Part shown: positions 14,601 through 61,870 of the stretch, piece after piece | Position numbering within the stretch: the stretch's first letter is position 1 | How the letters are laid out: the number at the start of each line of letters is the position of its first letter | Assembly (NCBI GenBank): GCA_023078555.1 | Contig: CM041199.1 | Coordinates: forward strand, 5,709,315 to 5,773,314 | DNA: 64,000 bases | Direction of reading: 5' to 3' | From: Ulva prolifera | Lineage: Eukaryota > Chlorophyta > Ulvophyceae > Ulvales > Ulvaceae | Notes under the pieces: generated by a model | What the model saw: only the letters and a program-made list of their open reading frames with translations | Told to the model about the DNA's origin: nothing | Database searches by the model: none | Made by a program: the position numbers and the translations under genes

Positions 14601-14717
14601 CTCTTACAGTGTTCCTCGGTTCTACCTCTGTGCGCAGCATGTATGGAACACTGGCCTCCTGACCTGATCTGAACTGAGACTGCGCGTCTGACCTGACAAG
14701 ATGTAGCATTTGTGACA
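11675..14717 (+). mobile_element. Copia-2B, 3' half (plus strand)
   Basis: Similarity to Copia-2C starts near 11675 (51395 in C). It covers the linker after integrase, reverse transcriptase (ISGNCVLKIKRGP, RHIDIQCAFLNGE, LYGLKQAAREW, WVDDLFIF, about 12640-13420), RNase H (DADFANSADMKS onward to about 14350), the purine tract TATGGGGGAG and the 3' LTR 14371-14717. A copy of mini-element M sits in RNase H. The 5' half is missing and several breaks are present. With Copia-2A it brackets the Pro/Ala-rich fragment in opposite orientation. They are two separate damaged copies, not halves of one element. Confidence 0.87.
13990..14113 (-). repeat. Mini-element M, independent insertion with 13-bp target duplication
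   Basis: 124 bp split the RNase H region of Copia-2B and are flanked by the direct repeat AAGCCAACTCTGT (13977-13989 and 14114-14126). The interior matches the array copies, including GCTTACTTACG and the CGTAAGTTACACATATCTGG end. Because the target is a known sequence type, this copy defines the edges of the element and shows that it moved by itself at least once. Confidence 0.85.
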
Positions 14718-20114: not shown

Positions 20115-20467
20115 TTCAGATCTTTGAAACGCAGTGGATTCGTCAAAAGCCCATAACCTGTCACGACATGTGGGTCGTTAGCAAGCACTCTGTGTTTACA
20201 TGAGAGAGGGCGACATATTTATGCAATGAGTTTGAGGTCACACCTGTCACGACATGTGGGTCGTTAGCAAGCACTCTGTGATGCTCACTAACTACAGCTA
20301 CACTATATGCAGATCAATATCCCACAGTCATGACCACTAGCACACTGTTGCTGCATGATATGCATTAGCCGCTACATTGACTCAGCACGAGTCAGCGCGA
20401 GTCAGCGCGAGTCAGCATGTCTACTCAGCGGGCGCTCAGCACTAGGCTAAACACACTTCTCTCAACA

Positions 20468-40475: not shown

Positions 40476-42998
40476 CTAACTTGTAACTTGTGGTCTTTTT
40501 GTTGTGAGATACATCTCACTAGGGCATGCTGGCGCGGCACACCTATAGACACCTAAGGCTGCAGCGCAGACCACAACATGTGTCCTCGTAACTTGGACTG
40601 GCGTCTGTACAACGCCACTTATACATTATATACCACGTTAATTATTATTATGCACATATGTGCACGCAATTTCTGTACAGCGTTGTCAGGAAAAGCGCCC
40701 ACCCGAAGGTGTACTACTTTCCTTTGAGAATCTGGTCATATATATACTTGAGTGCTGATGACTCATCATGACACCTCCCCTCACTCAAGGACCGCTGACT
40801 AGGATCCGAGGAGACAAACTTGGAGGCGGACGCGGATCCGGGTGCAGCTACCCGGATTCGAACCTGCGTCTATGGAGGTTACGATCCTCGCTATGACCAC
40901 TCTCACCGATACCATGTCAGGAAAAGCGCCCACCCGAAGGTGTACTACTTTCCTTTGAGAATCTGGTCATATATATACTTGAGTGCTGATGACTCATCAT
41001 GACAAGCGTCCTGTACACTCGAATCACAATGATACGTGTATGCCTGACACCTTACTGGACGTGGCTACGAGTGCACCAACTCGGCCAGCTTACGCAGCCA
41101 TGCTTAGTTGGCACTATATTATATCGGGTTACTCGGAACAGCGCATTAGCGGTCATGTCCTACCCAAGCTAGACTGGTATCTTACAGACCGGGTCGCATG
41201 CAGACCTCCCATGTTTATTTGCGAACTCACACATGTTACGCGGCAGCCTTGGGGCTTCGCATGCATGCCCGCTGTTAGCAGGCACGGCACCCACATCGAA
41301 CACGAAATCAGTGTGCGATCAGCCTTCAGGCTCCGAAGGCCACATGTTCACTTTCTCCCGCAGTTACTCGGGATCTTGGGTCTGCGCTCTGCGCGATCCG
41401 GCGAGGCCAGCTCTGACAGGGGGATCGACCTGGGCGCACACACCATCGGTATTTATACCGAGCGCTTGCTGGGACCAGGCACGTTTTTACAGTGATCTGG
41501 TTGGGGCGCCACCCATTCGTGCATCACATTGTATTGAATTCTTGCCTCTTTTCGCATCTGTCTGTTCTATTTCTGTCTGCCTGTACAGCCTTCGTGCTGC
41601 GGCGTTTAGCCCATTTTATTCAGCTGTCCTCGCGCAGCACCGTAGGTCCGTTCCGCCCCGGCGACTCAGAGACTTCTACAGGTATCGGTGACCTCAAGAT
41701 CTCTGTCCCGATTATTCTTTTATTACTTGCAGATGGCCAGCGAATTAGCTGCCCAAGCCATGGAGGACCCGGTTACGTGGGAATCCGCTCGTGAGTCGAT
41801 CGTTACATGTGTTGATTCGAATTTTTCTTTAGAACAATGTCAGAATCCTGGCCTGGCTAGCTTCCCTCAGGAAGACTTAGACTTTATTCGACGTCTGTTT
41901 AGCATGCTGCTGTGGCTGCAAAACGTTATGGTGAATTGTGCTGCTGACTTTGACAAGCCGGCGTTCATGGCTGTATGCCGGGATGCCAGACAGATTTTCT
42001 TAGAGTCTGACCTGCCGGATGACGAGGTACCCTTCCGACCTCTGGAGAAGAAGGTGTCTTCGGAAGCTGTTAAGCGTGCCCTTAAGGCGCCGGGTGGATT
42101 TTTGTGCGCGGCTGATTGGGGCCCCGTGGACGGCCCCGTGCGCAACTTGCTTAGCCCGGCAGCCATGACATTATTGGTCTGGCTCGGGCCTAGGTTCGCC
42201 AAGCCCCTGCTTGATCTGACTTTTGCTTTCTCCACCAATTACAAGTCGTTTACGCTTGCCATGTTGGCATGCCCTGTCCGTACCGACTTGTTAGGACTGC
42301 TTGGCGTCAAGGAGCGGACTACGAAGTTACGTACCACGCCCGCTGTTAACAGCCATGGCGCTGCACTAATTAAGCTTGTGAAAGCCTCGGAGCCAAAAGT
42401 TTTTAATATTGTGCACGCAGTATGGCATGCGTTTACTAGTGCACGTTATTGTCTCAAAAGCGTGTCTGAAGTGTTCCCAACGGTCCACGTTTCGGAGATT
42501 ACCAAGGCGGAGGCACAACAGTATCGGGACTGCTCGGCAAGCGTCACCACCCAGGTGCAGTCAATCTTACCCATCCATTCATCACTGCCTGAGAGTAACC
42601 CGAATTTTCTTGATGACAGCTCAAATACGTGTTTTCGTAGTGCTCAATATACATTTTCGTCGGTTCACATGCCCACAGCAGCCGCGTTGCGCGGCGATCC
42701 CTTATCCGAATTACGTTGGCACAAGTACCAAAGCGACGTTTTGCATGCACGCGCGAATTGTTTGCAACTATCAGAGAAGCAAGTCATACAACATCTGACC
42801 ACCACTTTTTCTCGCACTGACCAACATGTTACGGTTGCGCAAGAAGCTGCTCTGAACCCTGAATGCACTGTCCGACAGTGGTTAGAAGTGATTAGAGACT
42901 TTTACTTCACCAGCGGTCAGTTCAGACATAATATTGAACACGCGTGGCAGCGCTATGACGCGGCCGACTCTGCTGATTTTAATGAGCTTATGCACCAC
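40476..42998 (+). mobile_element. LTR-X, second copy (5' part)
   Basis: Duplicate of 602-3124: LTR from about 40482 to 41680, primer site GGTATCGGTGA at 41681-41691, Gag-like frame from 41733, ended by Copia-1C at 42999. The TRIM-1 in its LTR is also present, so that insertion is older than the duplication. Confidence 0.6.
40684..41004 (-). mobile_element. TRIM-1, duplicate of the 810 copy
   Basis: Same insertion as at 810-1130 with the same target duplication AGCGT. LTRs are 40684-40773 and 40915-41004. The tRNA-like module lies at 40849-40914. Confidence 0.9.
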
Positions 42999-43013
42999 TG
43001 TCGAGAGAAATAG
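41733..43013 (+). CDS. Gag-like protein of LTR-X, second copy (truncated)
   Basis: The same 426 residues as at 1859-3139, with its natural C-terminus likewise missing because Copia-1C starts at 42999. Identical sequence in both copies says only that the duplication is recent, not that the protein is under selection. Confidence 0.5.
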   Translation: MASELAAQAMEDPVTWESARESIVTCVDSNFSLEQCQNPGLASFPQEDLDFIRRLFSMLLWLQNVMVNCAADFDKPAFMAVCRDARQIFLESDLPDDEVPFRPLEKKVSSEAVKRALKAPGGFLCAADWGPVDGPVRNLLSPAAMTLLVWLGPRFAKPLLDLTFAFSTNYKSFTLAMLACPVRTDLLGLLGVKERTTKLRTTPAVNSHGAALIKLVKASEPKVFNIVHAVWHAFTSARYCLKSVSEVFPTVHVSEITKAEAQQYRDCSASVTTQVQSILPIHSSLPESNPNFLDDSSNTCFRSAQYTFSSVHMPTAAALRGDPLSELRWHKYQSDVLHARANCLQLSEKQVIQHLTTTFSRTDQHVTVAQEAALNPECTVRQWLEVIRDFYFTSGQFRHNIEHAWQRYDAADSADFNELMHHCREK

Positions 43014-43274
43014 GTTTAGTCTAGGCCAGTGTAAACATGCATGTAGTTGACTCACTTGTGTGATCATGAGGGTCGTGACAGCAGGGCGTACTCTGCATAT
43101 ATAGTCTAGATGTGGGCAGTGAGCTCTATCGAGTCTCACTGACCTTCCCTCTGTCACGACAGGTATGTCTACGTCTCTGCATCGTTCATGTCATGCTCCT
43201 GTATCTGTAAGTCGAGTCTCACTGACCTTCCCTCTGTCACGACAGGTTATGGGCCTTTTTACGGATCCACTGCG

Positions 43275-45743
43275 ATGAATCTCAAAGATGTGAAGTTAGG
43301 CTTAGATCTAACTCCCACCAACGCAGTCCAATGGTTCCATCGTATGGAGCTGTTGCTGCGCAGCGTCAGTTGCTGGAAGGTGGTCACAGAGGACGAAGGC
43401 ACAGAGTCGATCAAAAATGCTGCCCGGCTTGCAATCTCATGCAACGTCGGAGACGACCTGATACATATTGTCAGCACGTCAGCTACTCCCAAAGAGATAT
43501 GGGATGCCCTGAAGAAGCAGTTCTCAGGCGTGAGCGCAGCACGGAAGATGGCTTTATCTCGCAGCCAAGCTTGCTTCCGAAAGTCTGCAGATGAGTCACT
43601 CGATCAGTTCATAACGAGAGCAGAGCAGCTCCGAGCTGAACTAGCATCAGCACAGATGTTGAAAGAAGAAGAATTTGTTCTAGTCTTCCTTGCAGCTTTA
43701 GATGAATCCTCATATACGTCATGGGCGCAAGCAATCGCAGCCCAAGCAGAGCTGCCCACATTCGCGGATGTGACAGAGAATCTTCGTGGTACGTTTTACC
43801 AGAAGTTGCACACCACCGGTAGCACCTCGCAGTCCGAGGCTTACCAGACAGGTAGTACCCACTCTCAACAAGAGTGTGACTACTGCCACCACAAGGGTCA
43901 CCATATCCTTCAATGTTTCAAATTGAAAAATGATCAGCAAGCAGCGCAGAGTGATCCCGGGTACAAGCAAGGCAGAGGCCGTGGCAGAGGCCGTGGCCGA
44001 GGCAGAGGCCGAGGTAGAGGTCGTGGCCGTGGCTCCTATGCCAACCACACCAGTGCATTTGTCTGCATCGCTGCAAACAAGGTTGCAACTGACAGGTCCA
44101 AGTGGTTATTCGACTCAGCTTCGACTGACCACATGGTGAATGACCCCGCCGTTCTCCATGATGCCAAGCCCTTCAGCTCCAAGTGCACAGTTGCCAACAA
44201 ACAGACAGCCGAAGTCACTGCAGTTGGCACCGTGCAGCTCACCAACCATCATGGTAATCAGGTCACTCTCAAAGGCGTCTTGCTCGTCCCCACTCTACAG
44301 CACAACCTCATCTCTCTCAGCCGTGCAGACGAAGCAGGTTTGTCCTACTCTGGCCAAAACAACAAAATCGTCCTAAGGGATCAGCGTACAGAGCTGCTGG
44401 TAGGGCCTTTGACAAATGGTCTCTACGAGGTGCGATGCAAGCCCGTGCTCTCAGGCTCCGCGCCTGACATACAGGCTGCCAACGTGTCCCACTCAGACAA
44501 TGCCATCCTATGGCATCGCAGACTTGGCCATGCTGGCCACAGCACTCTTGCAAAGATGTCAAGAGGTGAAACAGTGCGCGGATTGCCGCCACCACAAGCA
44601 TTTGAACAGCAGCTCCAATCAACAGCCGTATGCACACCATGTGCTGAAGGCAAGATGAAACGCAAACCATTTCCAGCCTCACACCAACGTGCAACCAAGA
44701 AGCTAGAGAAGCTTCATGTGGACATTGCTGGTCCTTTTGTGACGACACCGGGCAAGGCTAATTACTATCTCATGATTGTTGATGACTTCAGCAACTACAA
44801 GCTCGTCACTCCAATTGCTCGCAAGTCAGATGCTGCAGACTGCCTCATGGACATCATCCCGAGGCTTGAAAACAAGTACGATTCGAAAGTACAGTACATG
44901 CGGTTTGATCGAGATGCCGTGTTCCTCTCAAACCGCATGAAAGCATGGTTCAAAAGCATTCATATTGAGCCACAGCCTACATCTGGCTACAGCCCACCGG
45001 AGAACGGGCATGCTGAGCGCGGCATCGGCAGCACCTCGGACATTCGTGATGCCCTATTGTCAGATTCCGGTTTGAAGAATATATATTGGGCAGAGGCAGT
45101 GGTGCATGCTGCATACCTCTCCAATATCATGAGCAGCAATGGCGGTCCGTCCGCATGGGAGCTGCTCAAAGGCAGCAAGCCAGACATCAGTGACTTGCAT
45201 GTGTGGGGCTGCACATGCCACTACAAGATTCCAGCGCAGAAGCGCAAAAAGGGTGAGCTTCCGCCCAAATCTTCAGTGGGCAAGTTCCTTGGGTTTGCCC
45301 AGCCAAACTTCCAAGCATACCGAGTTTTGTTGCCCAATGGTTCAGTCATCATCTCGAGGGATGTCAAATTTGATGAATCAGCAGCACCGGCCAGCGATGC
45401 CCGGATTGACAACGACTGTTCCAATCTGATGGAGACAGCAATGTCGCATCCGCAGATCAACCAGCAACCAGAGCAGCCACCGCAACAGCCGCAGCTGCCA
45501 CCGCAACAGCCACAGCCTGCCGTGCAACCACAACAGCAACAGCCTGCCGTGCAACCGGATCTTGTGCATCTCATGGCGGAAAATCCTTTGTTTGATGCAG
45601 CACACGGCGATAATGCAGCGCCAAACTCCCAGCCGAACACACCAAGGCGCAATCCACCTCGCACTAAACAGCCTCCTCAGGATCCATATCAGAAATATCT
45701 CCATGGCTTGCCGCAAAGTTCTCACGTAAATTTTCACCTGTAG
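43275..45743 (+). CDS. Copia-1C ORF1: Gag, protease, integrase
   Basis: 822 residues, matching the ORF1 of copy B in the residues I compared, with the zinc knuckle, Arg-Gly tract, protease DSAST and integrase motifs all present. The downstream reverse transcriptase of the same copy is disrupted by insertions, so any product would be Gag-integrase only. Confidence 0.87.
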   Translation: MNLKDVKLGLDLTPTNAVQWFHRMELLLRSVSCWKVVTEDEGTESIKNAARLAISCNVGDDLIHIVSTSATPKEIWDALKKQFSGVSAARKMALSRSQACFRKSADESLDQFITRAEQLRAELASAQMLKEEEFVLVFLAALDESSYTSWAQAIAAQAELPTFADVTENLRGTFYQKLHTTGSTSQSEAYQTGSTHSQQECDYCHHKGHHILQCFKLKNDQQAAQSDPGYKQGRGRGRGRGRGRGRGRGRGRGSYANHTSAFVCIAANKVATDRSKWLFDSASTDHMVNDPAVLHDAKPFSSKCTVANKQTAEVTAVGTVQLTNHHGNQVTLKGVLLVPTLQHNLISLSRADEAGLSYSGQNNKIVLRDQRTELLVGPLTNGLYEVRCKPVLSGSAPDIQAANVSHSDNAILWHRRLGHAGHSTLAKMSRGETVRGLPPPQAFEQQLQSTAVCTPCAEGKMKRKPFPASHQRATKKLEKLHVDIAGPFVTTPGKANYYLMIVDDFSNYKLVTPIARKSDAADCLMDIIPRLENKYDSKVQYMRFDRDAVFLSNRMKAWFKSIHIEPQPTSGYSPPENGHAERGIGSTSDIRDALLSDSGLKNIYWAEAVVHAAYLSNIMSSNGGPSAWELLKGSKPDISDLHVWGCTCHYKIPAQKRKKGELPPKSSVGKFLGFAQPNFQAYRVLLPNGSVIISRDVKFDESAAPASDARIDNDCSNLMETAMSHPQINQQPEQPPQQPQLPPQQPQPAVQPQQQQPAVQPDLVHLMAENPLFDAAHGDNAAPNSQPNTPRRNPPRTKQPPQDPYQKYLHGLPQSSHVNFHL

Positions 45744-46159
45744 GGCTCCCCCCGGAGCCCACGACGCTGACAGCAGCTCTCGCCGGACCTGAGGCACCCA
45801 TGTGGCAAGCGGCGGTTGAAGAGGAGTACACCTCCCTGGTTTCCATGAATGCGTGGGAGCTGGTGCGGCTGCCATCAGGCAAGAACGCCATTCCTTGCAA
45901 GTGGGTTTTCAAACGAAAACTCAATGCAGATGGCTCCATTGAACGCTACAAAGCCCGCTTGGTGATAAAAGGGTTTTATCAGAGAGAAGGTATAGACTAC
46001 AATGCGGTCTTTGCCCCCGTTGTCAAGACGCGTGTTAGTCTCATCGAGTGTGCACAGGGGTTAATGCGCGTGCCTGAGCTGGTAAGCATGCTGACTGTGC
46101 ATGACGACGTGGAGGGGAGCGTACCTTGCCATCGCGTAAAGTCGCGCGGCAGAAATGAA

Positions 46160-46222
46160 AGTAAGAATTGAACCGGTGACCTCATGAGTACACACTACAT
46201 GCTCTACCACTGGGGCTCACCT
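46160..46222 (-). other. tRNA-like module in the left LTR of TRIM-2
   Basis: On the minus strand an A-box-like CCCCAGTGGTAGAGC (46201-46215) is followed about 27 bp later by the B box GGTTCAATTC (46165-46174). The stretch ACTCATGAGGTCACCGGTTC resembles the anticodon loop, variable loop and T-arm of an elongator tRNA-Met (CAT), but with part of the anticodon stem missing. It is a degenerate tRNA-derived segment that could act as a Pol III promoter. Confidence 0.6.
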
Positions 46223-46720
46223 GAAGCAACGAGTCCTTTGTTAGATGACTCCTCCCTTGATTATGTCATCTATATTCTTGGATCCCCAGATATGGATATC
46301 CCACAACACTTCCCCCCTTAACGAGGATCGAGCGTAGGGAGATCCAGATCTGATAACTGTGGGATATCTTCGATGCTCCTGATGGAATGTTGGAACCTTC
46401 TCTTCGCGTCCCGAGTCCACGGGGGCCCAACCCGCTATAACCGAACTCATATAATTGGGACTCCCTTAAGCTCGAGAGCTATGCTGACTGGGATGCGATC
46501 GCTCGGGAGGAGCTCACACAGCGGAAGGTGTAATGAAGATGGAAGCTGTAAGGCAGATTACGAAGTCTGCTCACCGATACCTGTCAAGACGCGTGTTAGT
46601 CTCATCGAGTGTGCACAGGGGTTAATGCGCGTGCCTGAGCTGGTAAGCATGCTGACTGTGCATGACGACGTGGAGGGGAGCGTACCTTGCCATCGCGTAA
46701 AGTCGCGCGGCAGAAATGAA

Positions 46721-46783
46721 AGTAAGAATTGAACCGGTGACCTCATGAGTACACACTACATGCTCTACCACTGGGGCTCACCT
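46721..46783 (-). other. tRNA-like module in the right LTR of TRIM-2
   Basis: Identical to 46160-46222, 561 bp downstream, as expected for an LTR-borne sequence. Confidence 0.6.
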
Positions 46784-47711
46784 GAAGCAACGAGTCCTTT
46801 GTTAGATGACTCCTCCCTTGATTATGTCATCTATATTCTTGGATCCCCAGATATGGATATCCCACAACACCCGTTGTGCGTGCCAGCACCGTGCGCCTAT
46901 TTCTCTCCATTGTTGCCTCTTTTGATCTTGTGTGTCATTCCATCGACATCAAGAATGCATTCATCCAAGGAGCCGTTGAAGAGAAGATCTTCATGAAGCA
47001 GCCAGACGGGTATGATGATGACTCAGGTCAGGTTTGCATGCTCAACAAGAGCTTGTATGGGCTGAAGCAGGCTCCACGTGTGTGGAACAAGACTATCACG
47101 GCCTACTTCGTGTTTCTGGGATTTGTTCAGAGCCAGAGTGATGGAGCACTCTTCATGCTGTACACAGAACAGCTTGGCTTCGTTTTGATCCTCTGCTACG
47201 TTGACGACATCCAGATCGCTGCAAAGCAACTCACCAGTGTTCAGAATATCAAGAAAGCCATCTTGACGAAGTTTCCAGGCAAAGACACAGGAGATTCCAA
47301 GTATTTCCTGCAGATGACAATGCAACGCAACAGAGCAGCCCGCACGATCCACCTGAAGCAGCAACGACACATCGAGAAGCTCATTGATCAGCACGGACTG
47401 AAGGACGCATGGCCGATTGCAATCCCGATGATCACCAATCTCAGCAAAGACCCTGCAGGTCCAACCATCACAGATGTTGCAGCTGTCTCGCAATACAAGT
47501 CCATCGTCGGAGCCCTGCTCCACATTGCCAACAACACTCGTCCTGATATTGCATTTGCTGTGTCATTTCTTGCTAGGTTCACTGCTCAGCCTACAGGTAG
47601 CAGCTTTGCAAGACTGAAAGATGTTTTGTTGTATCTCAAAGGCACAGCCTCATACAGCTTGAGATTAAGAGGACCAGAGTGCGCTCTTCATGGTTTTTGT
47701 GACTCAGATTG

Positions 47712-50700
47712 TGTCACAATGCATGAGCCTGCGGGCAGCAGTGGTGACAGGTGCACCCATGCACGGACGATCTGCGGATCCAGTGTAGGGGTAAGCCGCC
47801 AGGTAGGATTGTCTCGATGTAGTGAGAGAGATCGTGCGAGGGTTTCCCGTCGTAACCTTGAGTGTTCAGTGTGCATATAAGCATGTGCACACTGAGATCT
47901 GTAACCTTTCTCTTTACTGTTTCACGGTATTAGCACTCTCCTTTCAGCATCTCTCGGTTCTACCTCTGTGCGCAGCAGGTACGAGATGCTGGCTGTCCTG
48001 ACCTGACTTGAACGAGGACTGCGCGTCCGCCCTGCACAAATGATAGCCTTTCTGACATGGTATCGGTGATGTTAGCGTTATGTCTGTTTATGGTCTTGTT
48101 CAGGAAAGCCGTCGGCCAATGTCTGTGCGCAGACACGGCGGGCATTCCACTGTTCTGCCGGCGCTCAGACTGCGGTCAAAAGCGCAGGCATCATTCAGCT
48201 CTCTCGTAGTACATTGTTGTTAGACACAATTCGAGAAGCTTGTTTTAATGATCAGCGCTGAGAAAAGCGAACGCGTTCGCTTGTTTTCTCAACCTGTTTG
48301 CTTGCGAGCGATCCCACTGGTTAGTTGCTGCGCGCGACAAACAACCATCTGTCCCGATGCAGGATGTCTCTCTCGAACGCAAACTCCAACGCCAATTCTC
48401 TTCGCGAAGAGAGGCGTGACGATGCTGACCAGCAGCCTCTCGTCGACAGGGACGCTGACCAGCAGCTCCCTGACGGAGAACAGCCTGCGGGTATGTTGCT
48501 CCGGGGCGGCCGAATTGTCCGGCCACCACCCTCTTCCCACACTGGGCAGAGCAGTCAGCAGGTGCCTTTTTCCTCTCATGTTGTGAACGATCCTGGTCAC
48601 ACTGAGTCACTCATATCACTCGAGACGTTAACCGAGGCGCTGCGCGCGTCTCGGGGACGTAGCGAACCTGATTTGACTAAAGGGAAATTGCCTGATTGGA
48701 ATTACAAGACTGAAAGTTTCGTTGCGTACGAACAGAAAGTCTTTTTGTGGTTAGGTCAGTTCGAGTTAGATCATTTGTTGCAGCACGCACCGTCTGCGGA
48801 CGAACAGCGTGTTCATGCTAGGGCGAGGACACAGGTCCTAATGTCTTTGCCTGACGCGGATAGGACGACTGTCTATCGCATGTCACACTTGTGTGAAGCA
48901 TGGTCCTACTTGACTGCCAAGTACAGACCTAGCACTGAAGCCGAAATCCACAGACTGTGGAGTCGGTTTAATTCTTTATCACAACACAATAAAGATGTTG
49001 CGACATACTGTGGTGAAGTGATGAGTGTTTACACTCAACTGGAGGCACTAGGTGCCGATGTGGGCCAGCGATGGCTACGATTGAAACTGTTAGAGGTGGG
49101 GGAGGAGTTCAACGCTGTGCGCGGCGAAGTTCAACACTCCTCCCCTCATGTGATAATATCGCGTTTAACTGAGCATGCTGATTTGCTCAAACAACAGCGG
49201 TCGCTGCAGGCTAGGTCTGGGGCGCCCGCGGGCAAACCAGGCCATGGCTGGCGCAAGCAGCCCCGTGGTGACGGTCCTGTGGTCGCTGCTCTCGCAGCTG
49301 GCCAGGCTCCTCGCGAGGAGACCAGGACCTGTTTCTTCTGCAAGAAGAAGGGACACTTGCGTGCGAACTGCCCCCAACGCAAACAGGCTGCGGCCAGAGA
49401 TGTTTGCACTATTGAAATGCCTGCCAAGTACCCACAGCCGGACGCGTCCATGCCGTGGAATATCATTGTTGATAGTGGGTCGGACATGCATATAGTAGGA
49501 AATCGGGAAATGTTCACTGAGTACGGCCCGTGTCAGAAAGTTGCCAATCTCGCGGGACCAGGGCAGCTTTCTATCATGGGTAGGGGAACCATTCAGGTGA
49601 ACCTGGGTACTTATGTGGACAAGCATGGGAACACGCACCCACTGGATGTGGAAATCCCTGGTGTTTACTATGCTCCCGAATGTCCGTACAACCTGCTCAG
49701 CACGATGGGTCTTAGATCAGAGCAGATGTTCCTAGACACGCGTAGGAATGTGTTATATGTCCCTGGTCTGGGTGATATGGCTACCGACATAGAGGACGAT
49801 GCCAAATATCAGGAACTAGATATGGATGGTCACCCTGTCTTTGCATTCAAAATGGCAGTAGAGACCAAACCCATTCTTGTCGGTGCGCCTGTCAATAGGG
49901 GGGTAGTCTGGTCTAACCAGAGCAGTCCGACCTCAGTTATTGAGGATCAACAGCAGTGGCATCATATGGCGGTTGCGGCCGTTGACCTTAAGCGACCCAA
50001 TGCTGGGGGAGCTGAGGTTCCATATGATGCATACTTGCTGGAACCTGCTTTTCTAGCGCATTTGTCTTTTCACCAGTCAAATTGGGTCCTAAAACGAATG
50101 CAATCCAACAGTGAATTTTATGGTCATTTGAATCTGGATGTCGATTCCGAGCCACTAGGGAATCGGTGTCACGGCTGCAGAATTGGCAAGGTGCCTGCGG
50201 GCAAGTTCTCCGCCAATGATCGTGCGCTCATGGGCCAGGCCAAGTGGCCTGGTGAGCAACTGCACGCCGATTTAGCTGGTCCTGTCTCTCCAGTAGGAAT
50301 TGGTGGTGTGAAATATGTTTTGTTTGTGATGTGTGCCTTTACCCGTTATACTTTCGTGGTAGGTCTGCGCAAAAAGAGTGAGGCTGCGGCCATGATCTCT
50401 TATATTATCGAACGCATTCGGGTGAATGTGGTGAAGCCAGGTGAACCGGGTGTGCGCATCCTACACACCGACAAAGGGGGAGAGTTTATGGTCGCGGCCT
50501 TAAAGCTCTACCTCCAGCGTCGCGGCATCACTCACCGCTTGACCCCCACAGCCGCTCATCGCTGTAATGGCATGATCGAGAGGAGGATCGGAGTGGCCTT
50601 TGAGTCACTCCGTGCTGCGCTGCTCGCGAGCGGCCTGCCTCTGTTCCTGTGGATAGAATGCCTCGCCAGTGTTGTCCATGGTCACAATCTCACGCCGTCG

Positions 50701-53118
50701 TCGGCATTGTACCATGACAAACTGGCGAGCATCCTCAAGGGCCTGAAAACTCAGCATGCTGTCAATGCGTCTGCGGACGTTGACGAAGCTGAGAAGAGCC
50801 TGGGGAAAGGTAAGCGCATGAAAAAGGCCGAGCGCGATAAGTTGAGGGACGAGGAAAAACGCAAGTACAAGTTGCTTGCGACGACAGAATTAGATGAGTT
50901 TTTAGTGCGGTCTTGTGATAAGGATATCATTCCTTATATGGCCTTTTTCAGAGACACCTCCGTCGAGGTGTTCCAAGATCTGCTGCGGCAGCAGCGTCCA
51001 TGGGGGGTTGAAGTGTATGCATACCCTAGGGATGACAAGCTGCGGAAGTTGTCCCCGCGGGGTGTGCCTGCATACTGGGTCGGTGCCGGGTTAGGCCCCA
51101 GCATGCAGCGTGTGTACGCCCAGGATGTTCCTGGGGGTAGGGTTTTTGTTGTGCGTCAGGTGATGTGCACTGCGGATCAGATGATCCGGCACGTACGCAA
51201 GTACGATGCGTCCGCCGTTGTGGACAAGAGGGAACCTGAGGAGTTTGCGAACTCCTATACGGTTGCTTTCGAGGGGGACGATGAGGGTGAGCGTGTGACT
51301 GACGCAGATGTCCCTCCTTTCGCGGCAGAGCACACGTATGATGGGGGAGTGTTGCGCCGTCTGCGTGACCAGCTTCACACCCCCCCTGGTCATGGTAGGG
51401 TCCCTGTCATGGAAATGACATTCCGGCAGGACAACCCTGACCCTGATCCTACTGCGTACTCTCCACGGTTTGGAGCTGGCTCCTCTGCGGAGATAATCCG
51501 ACGTGACCCTGCTAGGGCAACGCCGGAAATAGCCAGAGCAGCTTTGCACCGCACGCGTGCAATGTCCAGAGCTGCTGCTCACCCTGCCGTCCCTGCCCCC
51601 CCTCGTGTTCACGGCGAAGTGCATCATCCTGTCGCCACGCCCTCTCGCACCGCGCGGTATGTTGTCACGCGCAATGCTGTGTTGCACGACCCTGGTGTAG
51701 AAGTTGCGTTCCCCATTCCAATGTCTGTCAGTGCGTCTGATGACGACATGGAGGATCCGTCCGATGATGACAGCCATGGCATCTATGACGACGATGACGA
51801 ACAGCGCATGGACTACACCGTCTCAGATGATGAAAGAGCTGCGGCTCATCAGAATCTGGAGGCTCAGCGGGTCCGCTCAGGGAGTAATTCGGCAGCGGCC
51901 TCAGCATCTGGCGCGGGGGCAGTTGCTCAGCCCTTGCGAGGAGCTGAGGCGCCGAGGCCCTTCTGGGAGGATGAGCCAGATGAGGTGGAGACCGGGTCCG
52001 AATTAGGGGGAGAGGATCCGGACCCCTCAGCCGCAGTTGGGGTTGATTTGCCTGACGAGGTGAGGGCCATTCCAGCTGCCTTACCCCGTATTAAAATCAA
52101 TCCTCTTGTACGCAGACGCCTTGTTCCATTGGCTGCGGATGTAGCAGCTGTGCATATGAATGAGCCTGCGGGCTCTAATGCTAGTAGTGAAACAGTTGTT
52201 GCTGCTATTGAAGTTTCAGCTTGTAGCCAGGACACATCAGCCGCGGCTGACTGTGGAGTGTCCTGTGCAGGCCTGAAGCCTCAGCATGTGGAGTCTGGTG
52301 AGCAGCAGAGTGTTCAGCGTCGTGGGTCGCGCCGAGCAGCTGCCGCCAGGAAGCAGAAGGCCTCCTCCGACCCTGATATGCCTTCTATGAAGGAAGGACT
52401 TGCGGGTCCGGACAGGGATGCATGGCTGCGCGCCATGCAGGAGGAGGTAGATGCACTGGGTGAGCACGGAACCTTCGGGTTGTGCTATCTGCCTGCGGGC
52501 AAACGGGCTATCTCGGGCAAATGGGTGCTCAAGATCAAACGTGGGCCTGCTGGCGAGGTTCAGCGGTATAAGGCACGATATGTAGCTCGTGGTTTTTCTC
52601 AGGTAGAAGGTATAGACTTTTTTGAGACTTGGTCTCCTGTCGGTAGTTATGCGACACTGCGTGTGTTGCTGTCAGTTGCTGCTCAGGAAGACTTAGAGAT
52701 TAGACACATAGACATTCAGTGCGCTTTTCTGAATGGTGAGCTAGAAGAAGAAGTGTTCGTTGAACAGCCCCCGTTCTTCACTGACGGGACAGCACGTGTC
52801 TGGAGATTGCATAAAACCCTGTATGGCCTGAAGCAAGCTGCTCGCGAGTGGCATAAAGCTTTAATCAAGGTCTTAGCTGAGATGGGATTTGTGTGCGCAC
52901 AAAGTGATCCCGGACTGTATGTCAGAACATCTGGTCGCTGCTTTATTTTCTTATGGGTCGATGACTTGTTCATATTTAGTAGCTCTGCGGGGTTACAAGA
53001 ACTTGTCGACATCATTCTCACGAAATTTGAGGGCAGAGATTTAGGTGAACTTGCATGGGCACTTGGCACAGAGATCATGCGTGATCGCAAGGCCAAAACA
53101 ATCATCACCTTTCTGACA
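47712..53118 (+). mobile_element. Copia-2C, inserted in Copia-1C, incomplete at its 3' end
   Basis: The 5' LTR is 47712-48057 (TGTCACAATGC to CTGACA) and the target duplication GATTG lies at 47707-47711 and 53119-53123. Gag, zinc knuckle, protease, integrase and reverse transcriptase are open. The element's own RNase H and nearly all of its 3' LTR are missing, yet its last bases still abut the target duplication. It is absent from Copia-1A and 1B. Confidence 0.92.
48058..48069 (+). other. Primer-binding site of Copia-2C
   Basis: TGGTATCGGTGA directly follows the 5' LTR. It would pair with a tRNA ending TCACCGATACCA. The same site occurs after the LTRs of Copia-2A (minus, 10083-10094), TRIM-1, TRIM-2 and LTR-X. 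Confidence 0.75.
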
Positions 53119-53559
53119 GATTGGGCAGGTTGCACGTCGACACGGAAGTCGACGACCGGGTATGTTGTGAAATGTGGGTTAGGTTCCATTGCCTGGAAAT
53201 CGGCCAAGCAGCCGACCTTGAGCAGGTCTTCATCCGAAGCAGAATATATTGCAGCAGGAGAAATTGCGAAAGAAGTGCAGTATTTTTTCAACATGGTCCC
53301 TCAAATGGGGCTGCCCTCTTTTTGTATTGCAGTGGGTATTGACAATCAAGCAGCGAAGAGTTTGATTGAGGACCCATTGTCTGCTGCACGTACGAGGCAC
53401 ATTGAGACGATCTATCATCACATCAGGGAGAAGGTCAAGCGCAAGCAGATGCGTTTTGTACAAGTGCCAACAGCTGATAACCCAGCTGACATTTTGACGA
53501 AGCCGTTGCCTCAACAGTTGTTTGAGAAGCATCGCCAGACCCTAGGAGTTGTGCCTTAG
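48364..53559 (+). CDS. Copia-2C Gag-Pol reading frame running into Copia-1C RNase H
   Basis: One continuous frame. I chose the start MSLSNANSNANS because Copia-2A begins there too; an ATG 13 codons earlier also exists. By residue: UBN2-type Gag about 100-290, CCHC knuckle CFFCKKKGHLRANC about 322, protease DSGSDMHIVG about 369, integrase core HADLAGP about 634, HTDKGGEF about 701, GMIERR about 736, reverse transcriptase WVLKIKRGPAG about 1387 to WVDDLFIF about 1532. From about 1586 on, the frame encodes the RNase H of the host element Copia-1C (TRKSTTGY to TADNPADILTKPL). The two parts come from different families; the shared frame is probably chance. Confidence 0.85.
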   Translation: MSLSNANSNANSLREERRDDADQQPLVDRDADQQLPDGEQPAGMLLRGGRIVRPPPSSHTGQSSQQVPFSSHVVNDPGHTESLISLETLTEALRASRGRSEPDLTKGKLPDWNYKTESFVAYEQKVFLWLGQFELDHLLQHAPSADEQRVHARARTQVLMSLPDADRTTVYRMSHLCEAWSYLTAKYRPSTEAEIHRLWSRFNSLSQHNKDVATYCGEVMSVYTQLEALGADVGQRWLRLKLLEVGEEFNAVRGEVQHSSPHVIISRLTEHADLLKQQRSLQARSGAPAGKPGHGWRKQPRGDGPVVAALAAGQAPREETRTCFFCKKKGHLRANCPQRKQAAARDVCTIEMPAKYPQPDASMPWNIIVDSGSDMHIVGNREMFTEYGPCQKVANLAGPGQLSIMGRGTIQVNLGTYVDKHGNTHPLDVEIPGVYYAPECPYNLLSTMGLRSEQMFLDTRRNVLYVPGLGDMATDIEDDAKYQELDMDGHPVFAFKMAVETKPILVGAPVNRGVVWSNQSSPTSVIEDQQQWHHMAVAAVDLKRPNAGGAEVPYDAYLLEPAFLAHLSFHQSNWVLKRMQSNSEFYGHLNLDVDSEPLGNRCHGCRIGKVPAGKFSANDRALMGQAKWPGEQLHADLAGPVSPVGIGGVKYVLFVMCAFTRYTFVVGLRKKSEAAAMISYIIERIRVNVVKPGEPGVRILHTDKGGEFMVAALKLYLQRRGITHRLTPTAAHRCNGMIERRIGVAFESLRAALLASGLPLFLWIECLASVVHGHNLTPSSALYHDKLASILKGLKTQHAVNASADVDEAEKSLGKGKRMKKAERDKLRDEEKRKYKLLATTELDEFLVRSCDKDIIPYMAFFRDTSVEVFQDLLRQQRPWGVEVYAYPRDDKLRKLSPRGVPAYWVGAGLGPSMQRVYAQDVPGGRVFVVRQVMCTADQMIRHVRKYDASAVVDKREPEEFANSYTVAFEGDDEGERVTDADVPPFAAEHTYDGGVLRRLRDQLHTPPGHGRVPVMEMTFRQDNPDPDPTAYSPRFGAGSSAEIIRRDPARATPEIARAALHRTRAMSRAAAHPAVPAPPRVHGEVHHPVATPSRTARYVVTRNAVLHDPGVEVAFPIPMSVSASDDDMEDPSDDDSHGIYDDDDEQRMDYTVSDDERAAAHQNLEAQRVRSGSNSAAASASGAGAVAQPLRGAEAPRPFWEDEPDEVETGSELGGEDPDPSAAVGVDLPDEVRAIPAALPRIKINPLVRRRLVPLAADVAAVHMNEPAGSNASSETVVAAIEVSACSQDTSAAADCGVSCAGLKPQHVESGEQQSVQRRGSRRAAAARKQKASSDPDMPSMKEGLAGPDRDAWLRAMQEEVDALGEHGTFGLCYLPAGKRAISGKWVLKIKRGPAGEVQRYKARYVARGFSQVEGIDFFETWSPVGSYATLRVLLSVAAQEDLEIRHIDIQCAFLNGELEEEVFVEQPPFFTDGTARVWRLHKTLYGLKQAAREWHKALIKVLAEMGFVCAQSDPGLYVRTSGRCFIFLWVDDLFIFSSSAGLQELVDIILTKFEGRDLGELAWALGTEIMRDRKAKTIITFLTDWAGCTSTRKSTTGYVVKCGLGSIAWKSAKQPTLSRSSSEAEYIAAGEIAKEVQYFFNMVPQMGLPSFCIAVGIDNQAAKSLIEDPLSAARTRHIETIYHHIREKVKRKQMRFVQVPTADNPADILTKPLPQQLFEKHRQTLGVVP

Positions 53560-53817
53560 ACTACGTGGGAGTGTCGAGAGAAATAGGTTTAGTCTAGGCC
53601 AGTGTGAACATGCATGTAGTTGACTCACTTGTGTGATCATGAGGGTCGTGACAGCAGGGCGTACTCTGCATATATAGTCTAGATGTGGGCAGTGAGCTCT
53701 ATCGAGTCTCACTGACCTTCCCTCTGTCACGACAGGTATGTCTACGTCTCTGCATCGTTCATGTCATGCTCCTGTATCTGTAAGTCGAGTCTCACTGACC
53801 TTCCCTCTGTCACGACA

Positions 53818-54877
53818 CCTTCATCCGCTTGCGGTCAACATGACCGTCCCGAGTTCGTGTAAAGCGGACATGCCCCCGTCTGCGTGGAGTGAGAATGATT
53901 GCTTGGACTCCGTCTTCATTGAAGTTTCCTTCATCCGCTTGGAGTCAACATGACCGTCCCGAGTTCTTGTAAAGCGGACATGCCCCCGTCTGCGTGGAGT
54001 GAGAATGATTGCTTGGACTCCGTCTTCATTGTAGTTGCCTTCATCCGCTTGGAGTCAACATGACCGTCCCGAGTTCGTGTAAAGCGGACATGCCCCCGTC
54101 TGCGTGGAGTGAGAATGATTGGTTGGACTCCGTCTTCATTGAAGTTGCCTTCATCCGCTTGCGGTCAACATGACCGTCCCGAGTTCGTGTGAAGCGGACA
54201 TGCGCGCGTCTGCGTGGATTGTTTTTGATTGCGTGGACTCCGTCTTCATTGAAGTTGCCTTCATCCGCTTGCAGTCAACATGACCGTCCGAGTTCGTGTA
54301 AAGCGGACATGCCCCCGTCTGCGTGGAGTGAGAATGATTGTTTGGACTCCGTCTTCATTGAAGTTGCCTTCATCCGCTTGCGGTCAACATGACCGTCCCG
54401 AGTTCGTGTGAAGCGGACATGCGCGCGTCTGCGTGGAGTGAGAATGATTGCTTGGACTCCGTCTTCATTGAAGTTGCCTTCATCCGCTTGGAGTCAACAT
54501 GACCGTCCCGAGTTCGTGTAAAGTGGACATGCCCCCGTCTGCGTGGAGTGAGAATGATTGCTTGGACTCCGTCTTCATTGTAGTTGCCTTCATCCGCTTG
54601 GAGTCAACATGACCGTCCCGACTTCGTGTAAAGATGACATGCCCCCGTCTGCGTGGAGTGAGAATGATTGCTTGGACTCCGTCTTCATTAAATTGCCTTC
54701 ATCCACTTGGAGTCAACATGACCGTCCCAAGATCGTGTGAAGTGGACATGCCCCCGTCTGCGTGGATTAATTATGATTGCGTGGACTCCGTCTTCGTTGA
54801 AGTTGCCTTCATCCGCTTGGAGTCAACATGACCGTCCCGAGTTCGTGTAAAGCGGACATGCCCCCGTCTGCGTGGAG
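53818..54877. repeat. Satellite block of a+b dimers, second copy
   Basis: Duplicate of 7678-8737 with one 110-bp unit gained on the left relative to it and one lost on the right. It shows that unit turnover continued after the duplication. Confidence 0.9.
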
Positions 54878-54990
54878 TTTTTTTGCAGTGTTGCTTTCTT
54901 GTGGTTGCTGGTGTGGCAGCCGGTCGCTGGGTTGGCTTGATGTTGTTTGTTTGCTTTGCCATACAATGGCCAGCTATGTGTAACTTAACA
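54878..54990 (+). repeat. Mini-element M at a junction, second copy
   Basis: Duplicate of 8738-8850, bridging satellite and the truncated Gag region of Copia-2A. Confidence 0.75.
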
Positions 54991-56580
54991 CCGACCACGG
55001 TGCTGCTTGCGCCAGCCATGGCCTGGTTTGCCCGCGGGCGCCCCTGACCTAGCCTGCAGCTGCCGCTTTTGTTTGAGCAAGTCAGCATGCTCAGTCAAAC
55101 GTGATATGATCACATGAGGGGAGGAGTGTTGGACTTCGCCGCGCACAGCGTTGAACTCCTCCCCCACCTCTAACAGATATGTGTAACTTAGGGACCTCTA
55201 ACAGTTTCAAACGAAGCCATCGCTGGCCCACATCGGCACCTAGTGCCTCCAGTTGAGTGTAAACACTCATCACATCACCACAATATGTCGCGACATCTTT
55301 ATTGTGTTGTGAGAAAGAATTAAACCGACTCCACAATCTGTGGATCTCGGCTTCAGTGCTAGGCATATACTTTGCAGTCAAGTAAGACCATGCTTCACAC
55401 AGGTGTGGCATGCGATAGACAGTCGTCCTATCCGCGTCAGGCAAAGACATCAGGACCTGTGTCCTCGCCCTAGCATGAACACGATGTTCGTCCGCAGACG
55501 GTGCGCGCTGCAACAGATGATCTAACTCAAATTGGCCTACCCACAAAAAGACTTTCTGTTCGTACGCAACGAAACTTTCAGTCTTAAAATTCCATTCAGG
55601 GAGTTTTCCTTTGGTCAAGTCAGGCTCGCTACGTCCCCGAGATGCACGCAGCGCTGCGGTCAACGTCTCGAGCGTGATGTATGACTCAGTGTGACCGTGA
55701 TCGTCAACAACATGAGAGGAAAAAGGCACCTGCTGGCTGCTCTGCCCAGTGTGGGAAGAGGGTCGTGGCCGGACAATTCGTCCGCCCCGGAGCAACATAC
55801 CCGCGGGCTGTTCTCCGTCAGGGAGCTGCTGGTCAGCGTGCCTGTCGACGAGAGGCTGCTGGTCAGCATCGTCACGCCTCTCCTCGCGAGGAGAGTTGGC
55901 GTTGGAGTTGGCATTAGAAAGAGACATCCTGCATTAGGACAGACGGTTGTTTGTTGCGCGCAGCAACTAACCAGTGGGATGGCTCGCAAGCCGACAGGTT
56001 GAGAAAAATAAGCGAACGCGTTTGCTTTTCTCAGCGCTGATCATTAAAACAAGCTTCTCGAATTGTGTCTAACAACAATATACTACGAGAAAGCTTAATG
56101 ATGCTTGCGCTTTTGACCGCAGTCTGAGCGCCGGCAGAACACTGGAATGCCCGCCGTGTCTGCGCACAGACATTGGTCGACGGCTTCCTGAACAAGACCA
56201 TAAACAGACATAACGCTAACATTCACCGATACCATGTCAGAAATGAGTTCTATCGTCAGGTCAGACGCGCAGTCTTAAGTCAGGTGAGGTCAGGGCAGCC
56301 AGCGTTCCATACCTGCTGCGCACAGAGGTAGAACCGAGGAACGCTGTAAGGGAGTGCTAGAACCGGGAAACAGTGAGAAGAATGGTTACAGATCTCAGTG
56401 TGCACATGCCTATATGCACACTGAACACTCAAGGTTACGGCGGGAAACCCTCGTGGGATCTCTCTCACTACATCGAGACAATCTTGGCTGGCGGCTTACC
56501 CCTGCACTGGATCCGCGGATCGTCCGTGCATGGGTGCACCTGTCACCACACTGCTGCCGGCAGGCTCATGCATTGTGACA
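54991..56580 (-). mobile_element. Copia-2A, second copy (5' part)
   Basis: Duplicate of 8851-10440 with LTR 56235-56580, primer site 56223-56234 and a Gag start at 55927. It is broken in the same way. Confidence 0.85.
55177..55193 (+). repeat. 17-bp stub of mini-element M, second copy
   Basis: Duplicate of 9037-9053 with the same 11-bp flanking repeats. Confidence 0.6.
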
Positions 56581-57375
56581 TCCACGCCCCTTTGCCGCTC
56601 TGCCGGCGCCACCGCGGCTCGTACCGGCGCCTGGGGCGGCGGCTGCGGGCCGGGCAGGCTGCTCGCGCGTGCCGGCACCCGCGCCAGGTGCTGACTGTTC
56701 AGCAGTGGCTGCAGGCGGGTCGGCAGGGGCGGGCTGAGCTGTCGGCGGGGGTGGCGGCGGGGGAAGGTCCGGCTGAGGCTGCTCCACGGGGTGCGCGGCG
56801 CCTGCGCTGGCTGTGGCTCCACGGTCGGTGGGTTCATCATTGGTGGGAATCGGGCGGTCGGAGTATGGTCGATGCGCTGGTGGTGCGTCTGTAGGCGTCG
56901 CTGCTCCGGTGGCTGCTGCAGGGGTCGGCGCTGGGGCTGGCGTGGCTGATGTGCTTGACGGACCTTCAGCAGCTGGAGCAGCCTTGGCTGCTTCTTCAGT
57001 GCAGGGAGGTTCCTCAGAGCTGCTCCGGGAATGCTGGCCCGAGGGTGGACCGGGATCCTCTCTCAGCTTCGCCCGCCGTGACCGCGGAGCGCTAGCTGGC
57101 ACAGATTCAACTTGTAACTTGGTTGCGAGCTGCTTCAGGAGCCGGCTAGCGGCTGCTGGCGGTTCATGTGGAGTCTCATCTACTTTGTTGTCCTCAGCTT
57201 CGACCTCTACGAGGCTGCCTTGCAAGCAGCACTCGCAATCAGATCTGGCAGCTGCTGCTTCATCTTTTGCTTCTGGATGCAGCACAGCGCGCTGGAGCTT
57301 GATGGGCGAGCGTGCTGGAGCTGCGACGCCTTCAAGCGTCCCAGAACGCCTTCTGTTCGACGTCGAGGATATGCT
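56566..57375 (-). CDS. Unidentified Pro/Ala-rich coding fragment, second copy
   Basis: Nearly identical to 10426-11235; I noticed one residue change (Lys-Val preceded by Asn instead of Ser in the DETPHEPP segment). No domain is recognised and no ATG start is visible. It ends in the LTR of the second Copia-2A. Confidence 0.35.
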   Translation of the reverse strand, partial: SISSTSNRRRSGTLEGVAAPARSPIKLQRAVLHPEAKDEAAAARSDCECCLQGSLVEVEAEDNKVDETPHEPPAAASRLLKQLATKLQVESVPASAPRSRRAKLREDPGPPSGQHSRSSSEEPPCTEEAAKAAPAAEGPSSTSATPAPAPTPAAATGAATPTDAPPAHRPYSDRPIPTNDEPTDRGATASAGAAHPVEQPQPDLPPPPPPPTAQPAPADPPAATAEQSAPGAGAGTREQPARPAAAAPGAGTSRGGAGRAAKGRGCHNA

Positions 57376-57814
57376 CTAACCGAGCGCCGTCATAAAATGT
57401 AATCCTTGCACTTTGTTTTCTTTTTGTGCTTCGCGGGCGGGTTCTTTTAGCTCCGCTCCTAGTCGCTTCACAGACAGAGCCACCGGGACTGCAACTTACA
57501 GCCACGGCAACAAGGCACCGTCCGGAACGCGAGGACCTAAACTAAACGCAGCAGTCTATTTAACGAAATAGATAAAGCATATTGGCATTGAATTCACGAG
57601 AACGCTCGTGCTCCTAGGAGCTGGGCTGTACGACCGCTGTCGTTACAGCACTCGAAACTTCCACAGCGCAGCTCTAAACACAGACAAATGGACCATAAAA
57701 CAAATCTAATTAATCAGATGCCAATATCTACTGCGAATTGTGTTTGCAGGCCTGCGGCGCACAGGAGCAAAGCGCCACAGTAGCGTCACGAATACAATGG
57801 ACGAAGAGTCAGGA
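57376..57814. other. Non-coding stretch, nothing recognised
   Basis: Duplicate of 11236-11674. No gene, repeat or LTR is supported. Confidence 0.4.
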
Positions 57815-60800: not shown

Positions 60801-60857
60801 GACCTGATCTGAACTGAGACTGCGCGTCTGACCTGACAAGATGTAGCATTTGTGACA
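57815..60857 (+). mobile_element. Copia-2B, second copy (3' half)
   Basis: Duplicate of 11675-14717 with reverse transcriptase, RNase H interrupted by mini-element M, and 3' LTR 60511-60857. Confidence 0.87.
60130..60253 (-). repeat. Mini-element M in Copia-2B, second copy
   Basis: Duplicate of 13990-14113 with the same 13-bp flanking repeat AAGCCAACTCTGT. Confidence 0.85.
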
Positions 60858-61870
60858 GATGCCAACGGGATCTCCGCCAGCGCTGCCACCGCCCCCATCC
60901 CCACTTCCCCGCCGGCCCACGCCAACGCCGACCCGCCGCCGTTCTCCGCGACCGCTCCTGGTTGCCTCCGCACCCCATCTCCAATGTCAGACATTGACTT
61001 CACGCCTACAGCGGAGGAGGCCGAATTCCTCGGCCTCACCCCTCCACCAACAGCCCGCACATGAGGACGACGCAGCGACCGCGCAGCCCGATGCTTCCGC
61101 GGTGGACTGGGTCGACCAGGAGGACCTGGTGTGTGACGGCCGCGCAGTCGACGCGCAGCGTGTGGGTACGCACTCACAAGCAGAGCTGCTTCTGAAACAA
61201 TCCAACAGATACTTGACTCTAGATCTGCACGCGGACGACTTCTGGCAGCGCTTGCGTAGTGGCTATGCACATGATTCTGATTTTGCCGAGCCACCTGCAT
61301 CATACCATTACGACCCTGAGCACCAGATGTACCTGCACAAGAACAAGATTGTTGTCCCTAATCATGATCACTTACGCCGGCAAATTCTGTTGTGGCACCA
61401 CGTACACCCCTGGCATGCACACATGGGTGTCTCTCGCACAGCATCATTGATCATAGACTCATTGTACTGGCCAGATATACACAAGGATGTCAAGAAATTT
61501 GTGTCACAATGCATGAGCCTGCGGGCAGCAGTGTGGTGACAGGTGCACCCATGCACGGACGATCTGCGGATCCAGTGCAGGGGTAAGCCGCCAGCCGAGA
61601 TTGTCTCGATGTAGTGAGAGAGATCCCGTGAGGGTTTCCCGCCGTAACCTTGTGTGTTCAGTGTGCATATAAGCATGTGCACACTGAGATCTGTAACCAT
61701 TCTCTTTACTGTTTCACGGTATTAGCACTCTCCTTTCAGCATCTCTCGGTTCTACCTCTGTGCGCAGCAGGTACGAGATGCTGGCTGTCCTGACCTGACT
61801 TGAACGAGGACTGCGCGTCCGCCCTGCACAAATGATAGCTTTTCTGACAATTTGTGTCACAATGCCATAG
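60858..61870 (+). mobile_element. Ty3/gypsy-like integrase fragment, second copy
   Basis: Duplicate of 14718-15730. The integrase zinc-binding domain lies at about 61345-61516, and the solo LTR interrupts it. Confidence 0.75.
61502..61849 (+). mobile_element. Solo LTR of Copia-2, second copy
   Basis: Duplicate of 15362-15709 with the target duplication ATTTG on both sides. Confidence 0.9.

What the first reader, a model, noticed from the sequence alone, without database searches (positions are those of the whole stretch)
46021..46869. TRIM-2 carries a tRNA-Met-like A and B box segment in each LTR
The Cassandra elements of plants are TRIMs with 5S rRNA sequence in their LTRs. Here the LTR instead contains a tRNA-like segment (CCCCAGTGGTAGAGC then GGTTCAATTC, minus strand) in the same sense as the element. 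This would be a tRNA-promoter analogue of Cassandra. A second, unrelated TRIM family in the same window also holds a tRNA-like module, which makes chance less likely.
Basis: partly seen in the sequence, partly recalled or inferred. Interest (0 to 1): 0.75.

Follow-up and report, generated by a model that had tools for sequence, protein, structure and literature searches.

The report
Mini-retrotransposon with tRNA-threonine-like promoter
A very short non-coding retrotransposon in what looks like a green-alga genome carries a decayed copy of a threonine tRNA gene, probably used as its promoter, in each of its end repeats; this kind of element was named Helenus in 2024, so the find is a new member in a probably new host group.

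Summary
46021-46869 is an 849-bp TRIM on the minus strand: two identical 288-bp LTRs, a 5-bp target duplication (CCCGT) with the empty site present twice in the window, a PBS matching host initiator tRNA, and a polypurine tract. Each LTR holds, in the element's sense, a segment aligning ungapped at 42 of 57 positions to the host's tRNA-Thr(UGU) gene. Its score is 54; the maximum in 1000 shuffles is 38 and in genomic controls 40, one real tRNA set aside. So the source is Thr, not Met, among the tRNAs compared. Thr(UGU) is best in 40 of 40 LTR copies read. The LTR start occurs 179 times, and A-B spacing is kept where it could be paired.

A tRNA analogue of Cassandra is not new: Kojima 2024 (PMC10886601) named such elements Helenus. 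This one meets the tested features. The host is of the green lineage, probably a green alga, a group absent from Kojima's host table. Pol III use is inferred: the segment is not more conserved than the rest, and lack of a T4 stop is not significant.

The parts
46021..46869 (-). Full TRIM-2 element (849 bp), no ORF of 150 aa or more inside
   Evidence: empty site in two other copies of the host Copia
46582..46869 (-). 5' LTR (288 bp, TGTTGT...TTGACA)
   Evidence: 100% identical to the other LTR
46021..46308 (-). 3' LTR (288 bp)
46870..46874 (.). Target site duplication CCCGT, copy 1
   Evidence: single copy at the empty sites 6142-6146 and 23868-23872
46016..46020 (.). Target site duplication CCCGT, copy 2
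46728..46784 (-). tRNA-Thr(UGU)-like segment in the 5' LTR (42 of 57 identical, ungapped)
46167..46223 (-). tRNA-Thr(UGU)-like segment in the 3' LTR
46762..46776 (-). Box A / D-arm part, CCCCAGTGGTAGAGC, 5' LTR
   Evidence: D arm matches host tRNA-Thr at 13 of 15
46201..46215 (-). Box A / D-arm part, 3' LTR
46726..46735 (-). Box B, GGTTCAATTC, 5' LTR
   Evidence: host tRNA-Thr(UGU) reads TGTTCAATCC at this place
46165..46174 (-). Box B, 3' LTR
46570..46581 (-). Primer-binding site GGTATCGGTGAG, complementary to the 3' end of host initiator tRNA-Met except its terminal A76
   Evidence: Host initiator gene L111; comparison
46309..46319 (-). Polypurine tract AAGGGGGGAAG directly before the 3' LTR
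46832..46837 (-). TATA-like AATATA at LTR position 33 (possible Pol II promoter; rival reading)
45800..47711 (+). Copia reverse-transcriptase region interrupted by the element (host element, not part of TRIM-2)
   Evidence: ORFs; uninterrupted copies at 5926-7419 and from 23652

Best explanation
TRIM-2 is a Helenus-type TRIM: a short non-coding LTR retrotransposon whose LTR has taken in a tRNA-Thr(UGU)-derived sequence. Shown: LTRs, target duplication, PBS, polypurine tract, copy number, the tRNA-Thr-like segment in sense, and box A to box B spacing kept in the copies that could be paired. Inferred: TFIIIC binds the A and B boxes in the 5' LTR and Pol III starts a few bases upstream, near LTR position 75-85. 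It reads through U5, the internal region and the 3' LTR, because no TTTT run stops it. The RNA then begins and ends with the same sequence (R), and a Copia element supplies reverse transcriptase and integrase in trans. First-strand synthesis is primed by initiator tRNA-Met and second-strand synthesis by the polypurine tract. The tRNA-like part is a promoter, not a working tRNA.
For: Best match of the LTR to host tRNA-Thr(UGU) at 54, against shuffle maximum 38 of 1000 and genomic controls of at most 40 apart from one real tRNA. Thr(UGU) is the best match in 40 of 40 LTR copies read. The match runs from tRNA position 2 to 58, with variable loop AGGTC 5 of 5 and D arm 13 of 15. A-region (one-T form) and B-region 24-mers with up to 3 mismatches occur 69 and 157 times genome-wide, reversed-pattern controls 0. 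All 44 A-B pairs formed from the listed places are 35 nt apart; 25 of the 69 A places have no listed partner. Exact 5-bp target duplications in 23 of 27 distinct loci; the other 4 lack an intact end. LTR pairs identical in 7 of 10 complete elements with duplication. Empty site present twice in the window. PBS shares 12 nt with the complement of the host initiator tRNA 3' end. Polypurine tract AAGGGGGGAAG. No TTTT in the window copy.
Against: No transcript data. Box A has lost the first T (GAGCC where Kojima gives TRGCY). The score to tRNA-Thr falls to 38, the shuffle maximum, in one copy, and 6 of 40 copies do not fit the strict box expression. The segment is not more conserved than the rest of the LTR: 16 of 64 positions vary against 47 of 224; the copies are young, so the test is weak. 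Lack of TTTT is not significant: 629 of 2000 shuffles also lack it, and 2 of 29 distinct LTR copies have it. An AATATA lies at LTR position 33, so a Pol II start is possible. No autonomous partner was identified. The PBS lacks the T that should pair with A76 of a mature tRNA.
Confidence: 0.67

Rival explanations
1. The tRNA-Thr segment is a relic, for example of a tRNA-derived SINE or tRNA pseudogene that landed in an ancestral LTR. Transcription is by Pol II from the TATA-like U3, and the tRNA part is a passenger.
For: AATATA at LTR position 33; segment no more conserved than the rest; box A partly eroded and tRNA fold lost; a second TRIM family in the same genome with similar LTR start, PBS and polypurine tract has only a weak tRNA match, score 28, the 95th percentile of the shuffles.
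Against: 34 of 40 copies read keep both boxes by a strict expression, and the spacing is kept where it could be paired; no AATAAA or TGTAA in the sense strand of the window copy.
Confidence: 0.26
2. Chance resemblance: A-box and B-box words in an unrelated LTR.
For: Such words are short; Rfam and ARAGORN find no tRNA.
Against: Score 54 lies beyond all 1000 shuffles (maximum 38) and the genomic controls apart from a real tRNA gene; the best isotype is Thr(UGU) in 40 of 40 copies read.
Confidence: 0.02
3. The segment encodes a working tRNA or tRNA-like RNA that spreads with the element.
For: The anticodon TGT is kept in the alignment; copy L121 can form a 5-bp anticodon stem by eye (CATGT/ACATG; one search prints the copy).
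Against: No tRNA model hit at E up to 10; T arm 9 of 17 and 3' acceptor 1 of 8 identical; the minimum-energy fold is not a cloverleaf, though neither is that of the real tRNA-Thr with these parameters.
Confidence: 0.02

Closest known systems
Helenus (TRIMs with tRNA-like LTRs; Kojima 2024, PMC10886601)
   Same: Short non-coding element, tRNA-derived sequence with A and B boxes in each LTR, PBS, polypurine tract, 5-bp target duplication as in fungal and plant Helenus, solo LTRs; Kojima also finds Thr-like members.
   Different: Host is of the green lineage, probably a green alga; Kojima's only plant host is Selaginella. The PBS uses the 3' end of initiator tRNA-Met without the terminal T. LTR homology to named families not tested (Repbase not held).
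Cassandra (plant TRIMs with 5S rRNA in the LTR)
   Same: TRIM with a small-RNA-gene promoter inside each LTR; methionine PBS and tandem forms (passages of PMC10853983 and PMC4717578).
   Different: Source is tRNA-Thr, not 5S rRNA. Pol III transcription counts as validated for Cassandra (so stated in PMC10886601) but is not tested here.
TRIMs of green algae (Gao et al. 2016, PMC4717578; passages seen)
   Same: TRIMs reported in Chlamydomonas and Volvox; tandem arrays common.
   Different: The passages seen report 5S sequence only in Cassandra; the search listing counted the word tRNA zero times in that paper.
Cassandra-like TRIMs without the 5S promoter in Asteraceae (PMC10853983, section 13 read)
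   Same: Related TRIMs with and without the Pol III promoter in one genome, like TRIM-2 beside the second family (L119, L120).
   Different: There part of the internal region is shared; here, by eye, only LTR start, PBS and polypurine tract look alike (no alignment run).

Membership tests
Helenus | tRNA-derived sequence inside the LTRs | tested here: met
   42 of 57 to host tRNA-Thr(UGU), beyond controls; 40 of 40 copies read
Helenus | Box A with TRGCY and YGG, box B with GGTTC (in most families) | tested here: met
   Box B GGTTC and YGG (TGG) exact; GAGCC matches TRGCY at 4 of 5
Helenus | Short non-coding element (311-1263 bp) | tested here: met
   849 bp; no ORF of 150 aa or more inside
Helenus | PBS next to the 5' LTR | tested here: met
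   12 nt complementary to host initiator tRNA 3' end, terminal T missing
Helenus | Polypurine tract before the 3' LTR | tested here: met
   AAGGGGGGAAG
Helenus | 5-bp target duplication (fungi, plants) | tested here: met
   23 of 27 loci, the other 4 lack an intact end; empty site
Helenus | Mobilised by an autonomous LTR element with similar PBS | tested here: inconclusive
   Copia-C in the window has TGGTATCGGTGA after its LTR, but TRIM-2 has no other similarity in the window; no partner identified
Helenus | Sequence homology to named Helenus families | not testable with these tools
TRIMp3 (Pol III-transcribed TRIM) | Pol III transcription from the LTR | not testable with these tools
   No transcript data; Kojima also infers it for Helenus
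Cassandra | 5S rRNA sequence in the LTR | tested here: not met
   No Rfam match at gathering score in the window; over the element at E up to 10 only a mir-62 match far below its gathering score

The most novel reading that the evidence does not exclude
TRIM-2 is an independently arisen Pol III-driven TRIM in green algae. Its promoter was captured from the alga's own tRNA-Thr(UGU). It sits beside a sister TRIM family (L119, L120) with the same LTR start, the same T-less PBS and nearly the same polypurine tract but no clear tRNA segment, so promoter swapping between Pol II and Pol III within one TRIM lineage could be followed in one genome. The T-less PBS (28 of 29 full internal copies of TRIM-2 within one mismatch; 4 of 4 junctions read of the second family) would mean that reverse transcription is primed by initiator tRNA ending in CC instead of CCA.
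Probability: 0.25. Interest if true: 0.6.

Novelty: new member of a known kind. Interest (0 to 1): 0.42.

Why it matters
It extends tRNA-promoter TRIMs (Helenus) to what is probably a green alga. Kojima lists fungi, animals and one lycophyte, so this supports repeated independent origins. The family looks recently active (identical LTR pairs in 7 of 10 complete elements; clean target duplications), which makes Pol III transcription of an LTR retrotransposon testable in a live host. The second family without a clear tRNA segment gives a natural comparison.

Tried and rejected
Met origin: rejected among the tRNAs compared. Working tRNA: not supported. Chance: rejected. Selection on the boxes: not supported (one search was a first version spoiled by one LTR in the wrong orientation and is replaced). 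Pol III terminator avoidance: not significant. Second TRIM as support: not supported. Similarity of the TRIM-2 LTR or internal region to other parts of the window: none at E 0.001. Species name: not found; SSU rRNA searches failed and paper searches for the genome gave nothing usable. The top LHC match, 9vfj, owes its score to several domains; the best single-domain match is chain 7dz7_V.

Full report
What is there. The region 46021-46869 is a complete TRIM inserted into the reverse-transcriptase region of a Copia element. The two 288-bp LTRs are identical. The element lies on the minus strand: after the 5' LTR comes GGTATCGGTGAG..., and AAGGGGGGAAG stands directly before the 3' LTR. The target duplication is CCCGT. 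Two other copies of the same Copia in the window lack the insertion and have CCCGT once, at 6142-6146 and 23868-23872.

The family. The window lies in an unnamed eukaryotic genome of 88.9 Mb in 44 contigs. The first 24 bases of the LTR occur 179 times with up to 3 mismatches, reversed control 0. The internal region gives 33 matches: 29 over the full 273 bases and 4 partial. From the 60 LTR loci fetched, 27 distinct loci were read. Of these, 23 have exact 5-bp duplications: 10 complete elements, 12 solo LTRs and one tandem with two internal regions. The other 4 lack an intact end. In the 10 complete elements the LTR pair is identical in 7 and differs at 1, 2 and 6 places in the others.

The tRNA-like segment. 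43 distinct host tRNA sequences, from 50 tRNA loci (of the 60 matches reported, itself a capped list) and the initiator gene, were aligned to the LTR. The best is tRNA-Thr(UGU), score 54, ungapped 42 of 57; the next isotypes score 36. Controls: maximum 38 in 1000 dinucleotide shuffles, 36 in 434 window stretches, 40 in 360 flank stretches after one real tRNA gene (148). The set lacks several isotypes, elongator Met among them, so 'Thr' is the best of those compared. Per arm: D arm 13 of 15, anticodon arm 11 of 17, variable loop 5 of 5, T arm 9 of 17, 3' acceptor 1 of 8. Thr(UGU) is best in 40 of 40 LTR copies read (37), with scores from 38 to 58; 38 equals the shuffle maximum. A strict box A-box B expression fits 34 of the 40.

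Spacing of the boxes. I used the first 100 listed places (of 179 and 157; both lists are cut off) and all 69. Of 100 LTR starts, 66 pair with a listed B box: at 125 nt (30), 126 nt (33), and 120, 127 and 157 nt (1 each); 34 have no listed partner. All 44 A-B pairs of the one-T form are 35 nt apart, and 25 A places have no listed partner. The 126-nt class fits the AGTGGTTAGAGC form, seen as a one-base insertion after LTR position 102 in 6 of 30 distinct aligned rows. Host tRNAs show both D-loop forms.

Primer. The host initiator tRNA-Met gene (L111, G000:C10) ends CACCGATA, so a mature tRNA would give the PBS TGGTATCGGTGAGAGG. TRIM-2 has (ACA)GGTATCGGTGAG. A search for the T-less junction with up to one mismatch gives 69 places: 20 exact, 8 ...GATGAG, 1 GACCGG and 40 AACAGG... 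(my count from its table). The first three groups cover 28 of the 29 full internal copies. The pattern would miss junctions that have the T. The AACA group was read at two places (L119, L120; 4 junctions). It is a second TRIM family with LTR start TGTTGTG, the same T-less PBS and the tract AAGGGGGGAGG; L120 also shows a GAACA duplication. Its best tRNA score is 28, at the 95th percentile of the shuffles. By contrast, Copia-C and the small 321-bp TRIM have the full TGGTATCGGTGA. Why the T is missing is unexplained.

How it probably works. A Pol III promoter in the LTR would give RNA with a repeated end, which the LTR-retrotransposon cycle needs; length and anatomy fit. Against: no transcript data, an eroded box A, a TATA-like AATATA in U3, no excess conservation of the segment (16 of 64 variable positions against 47 of 224; 108 of 288 circular shifts reach the observed count) and a non-significant lack of TTTT (629 of 2000 shuffles lack it too; 2 of 29 distinct LTR copies and 0 of 11 distinct internal copies have it). 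I put Pol III promoter use at about two in three.

What it is called. Searching papers for TRIM, retrotransposon, LTR, tRNA-like and Cassandra gave one paper, Kojima 2024. I read its abstract and outline, parts 1-4 of 6, and the legends and tables. It defines Helenus as TRIMs with tRNA-derived LTR sequence and proposes the term TRIMp3. TRIM-2 meets the tested features. Kojima's host table has fungi, animals and Selaginella. The present host gives 38 matches to the chlorophyll a/b-binding family, and one of these proteins is closest, by single domain, to chain 7dz7_V, a chloroplast antenna protein (that this entry is from Chlamydomonas is recalled). The initiator tRNA also looks plant-like (recalled). 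So the host is of the green lineage and probably a green alga; the species is not identified. No paper on a tRNA-like LTR in green algae appeared in the listings; two searches showed only 15 of 974 and 8 of 77 papers, and the library lacks most subscription journals.

Verdict. A real, recently active, well-formed Helenus-type TRIM.

Noticed in passing
L119, L120 (G000:C2:3952750-3954600, G000:C1:73200-74350): Second TRIM family with LTR start TGTTGTG, T-less PBS GGTATCGGTGAG and polypurine tract AAGGGGGGAGG but only a weak tRNA match; 40 such junctions genome-wide, one tandem array with 470-bp period.
   Followed up: partly
810-1130; about 37.33-37.65 kb; about 40.68-41.0 kb: Very small TRIM (321 bp, 90-bp LTRs) with PBS TGGTATCGGTGAGAG and a B-box-like stretch CGCAGGTTCGAATCC in the internal region (980-994, minus strand).
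   Followed up: partly
3371-3381, 21097-21107, 43245-43255 (+); 20149-20158 (-): Two Copia families have the PBS GGTTATGGGC(C), complementary to the anticodon region of the host initiator tRNA, which suggests priming by a cut tRNA as Kojima reports for fungal Helenus and as known for Drosophila copia and Ty5.
   Followed up: partly
about 47709-53118 inside 42999-53817: Nested insertions: a second Copia (Copia-C, LTR 47709-48057) sits in the same Copia copy that holds TRIM-2.
   Followed up: no
about 8951-15163 and 55091-61303; 1109-3139 and 40983-43013: Nearly identical ORFs repeat at offsets 46140 and 39874, so the window holds large recent duplications.
   Followed up: no
from 8, 7552-8861, from 25278 onward, 53818-54878: Tandem arrays with 55/110-bp period (one search lists up to 207 register matches of a 300-base reference, most not shown), which give spurious repetitive ORFs.
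   Followed up: no
Host tRNA genes read: A gene called tRNA-Ser(act) has no long variable arm and a body like the Thr tRNAs; one Thr and two Lys genes have an insertion in the anticodon loop, probably introns.
   Followed up: no
[quoted passage not shown] contig C7 holds 30 of the first 100 listed LTR starts (list cut off).
   Followed up: no
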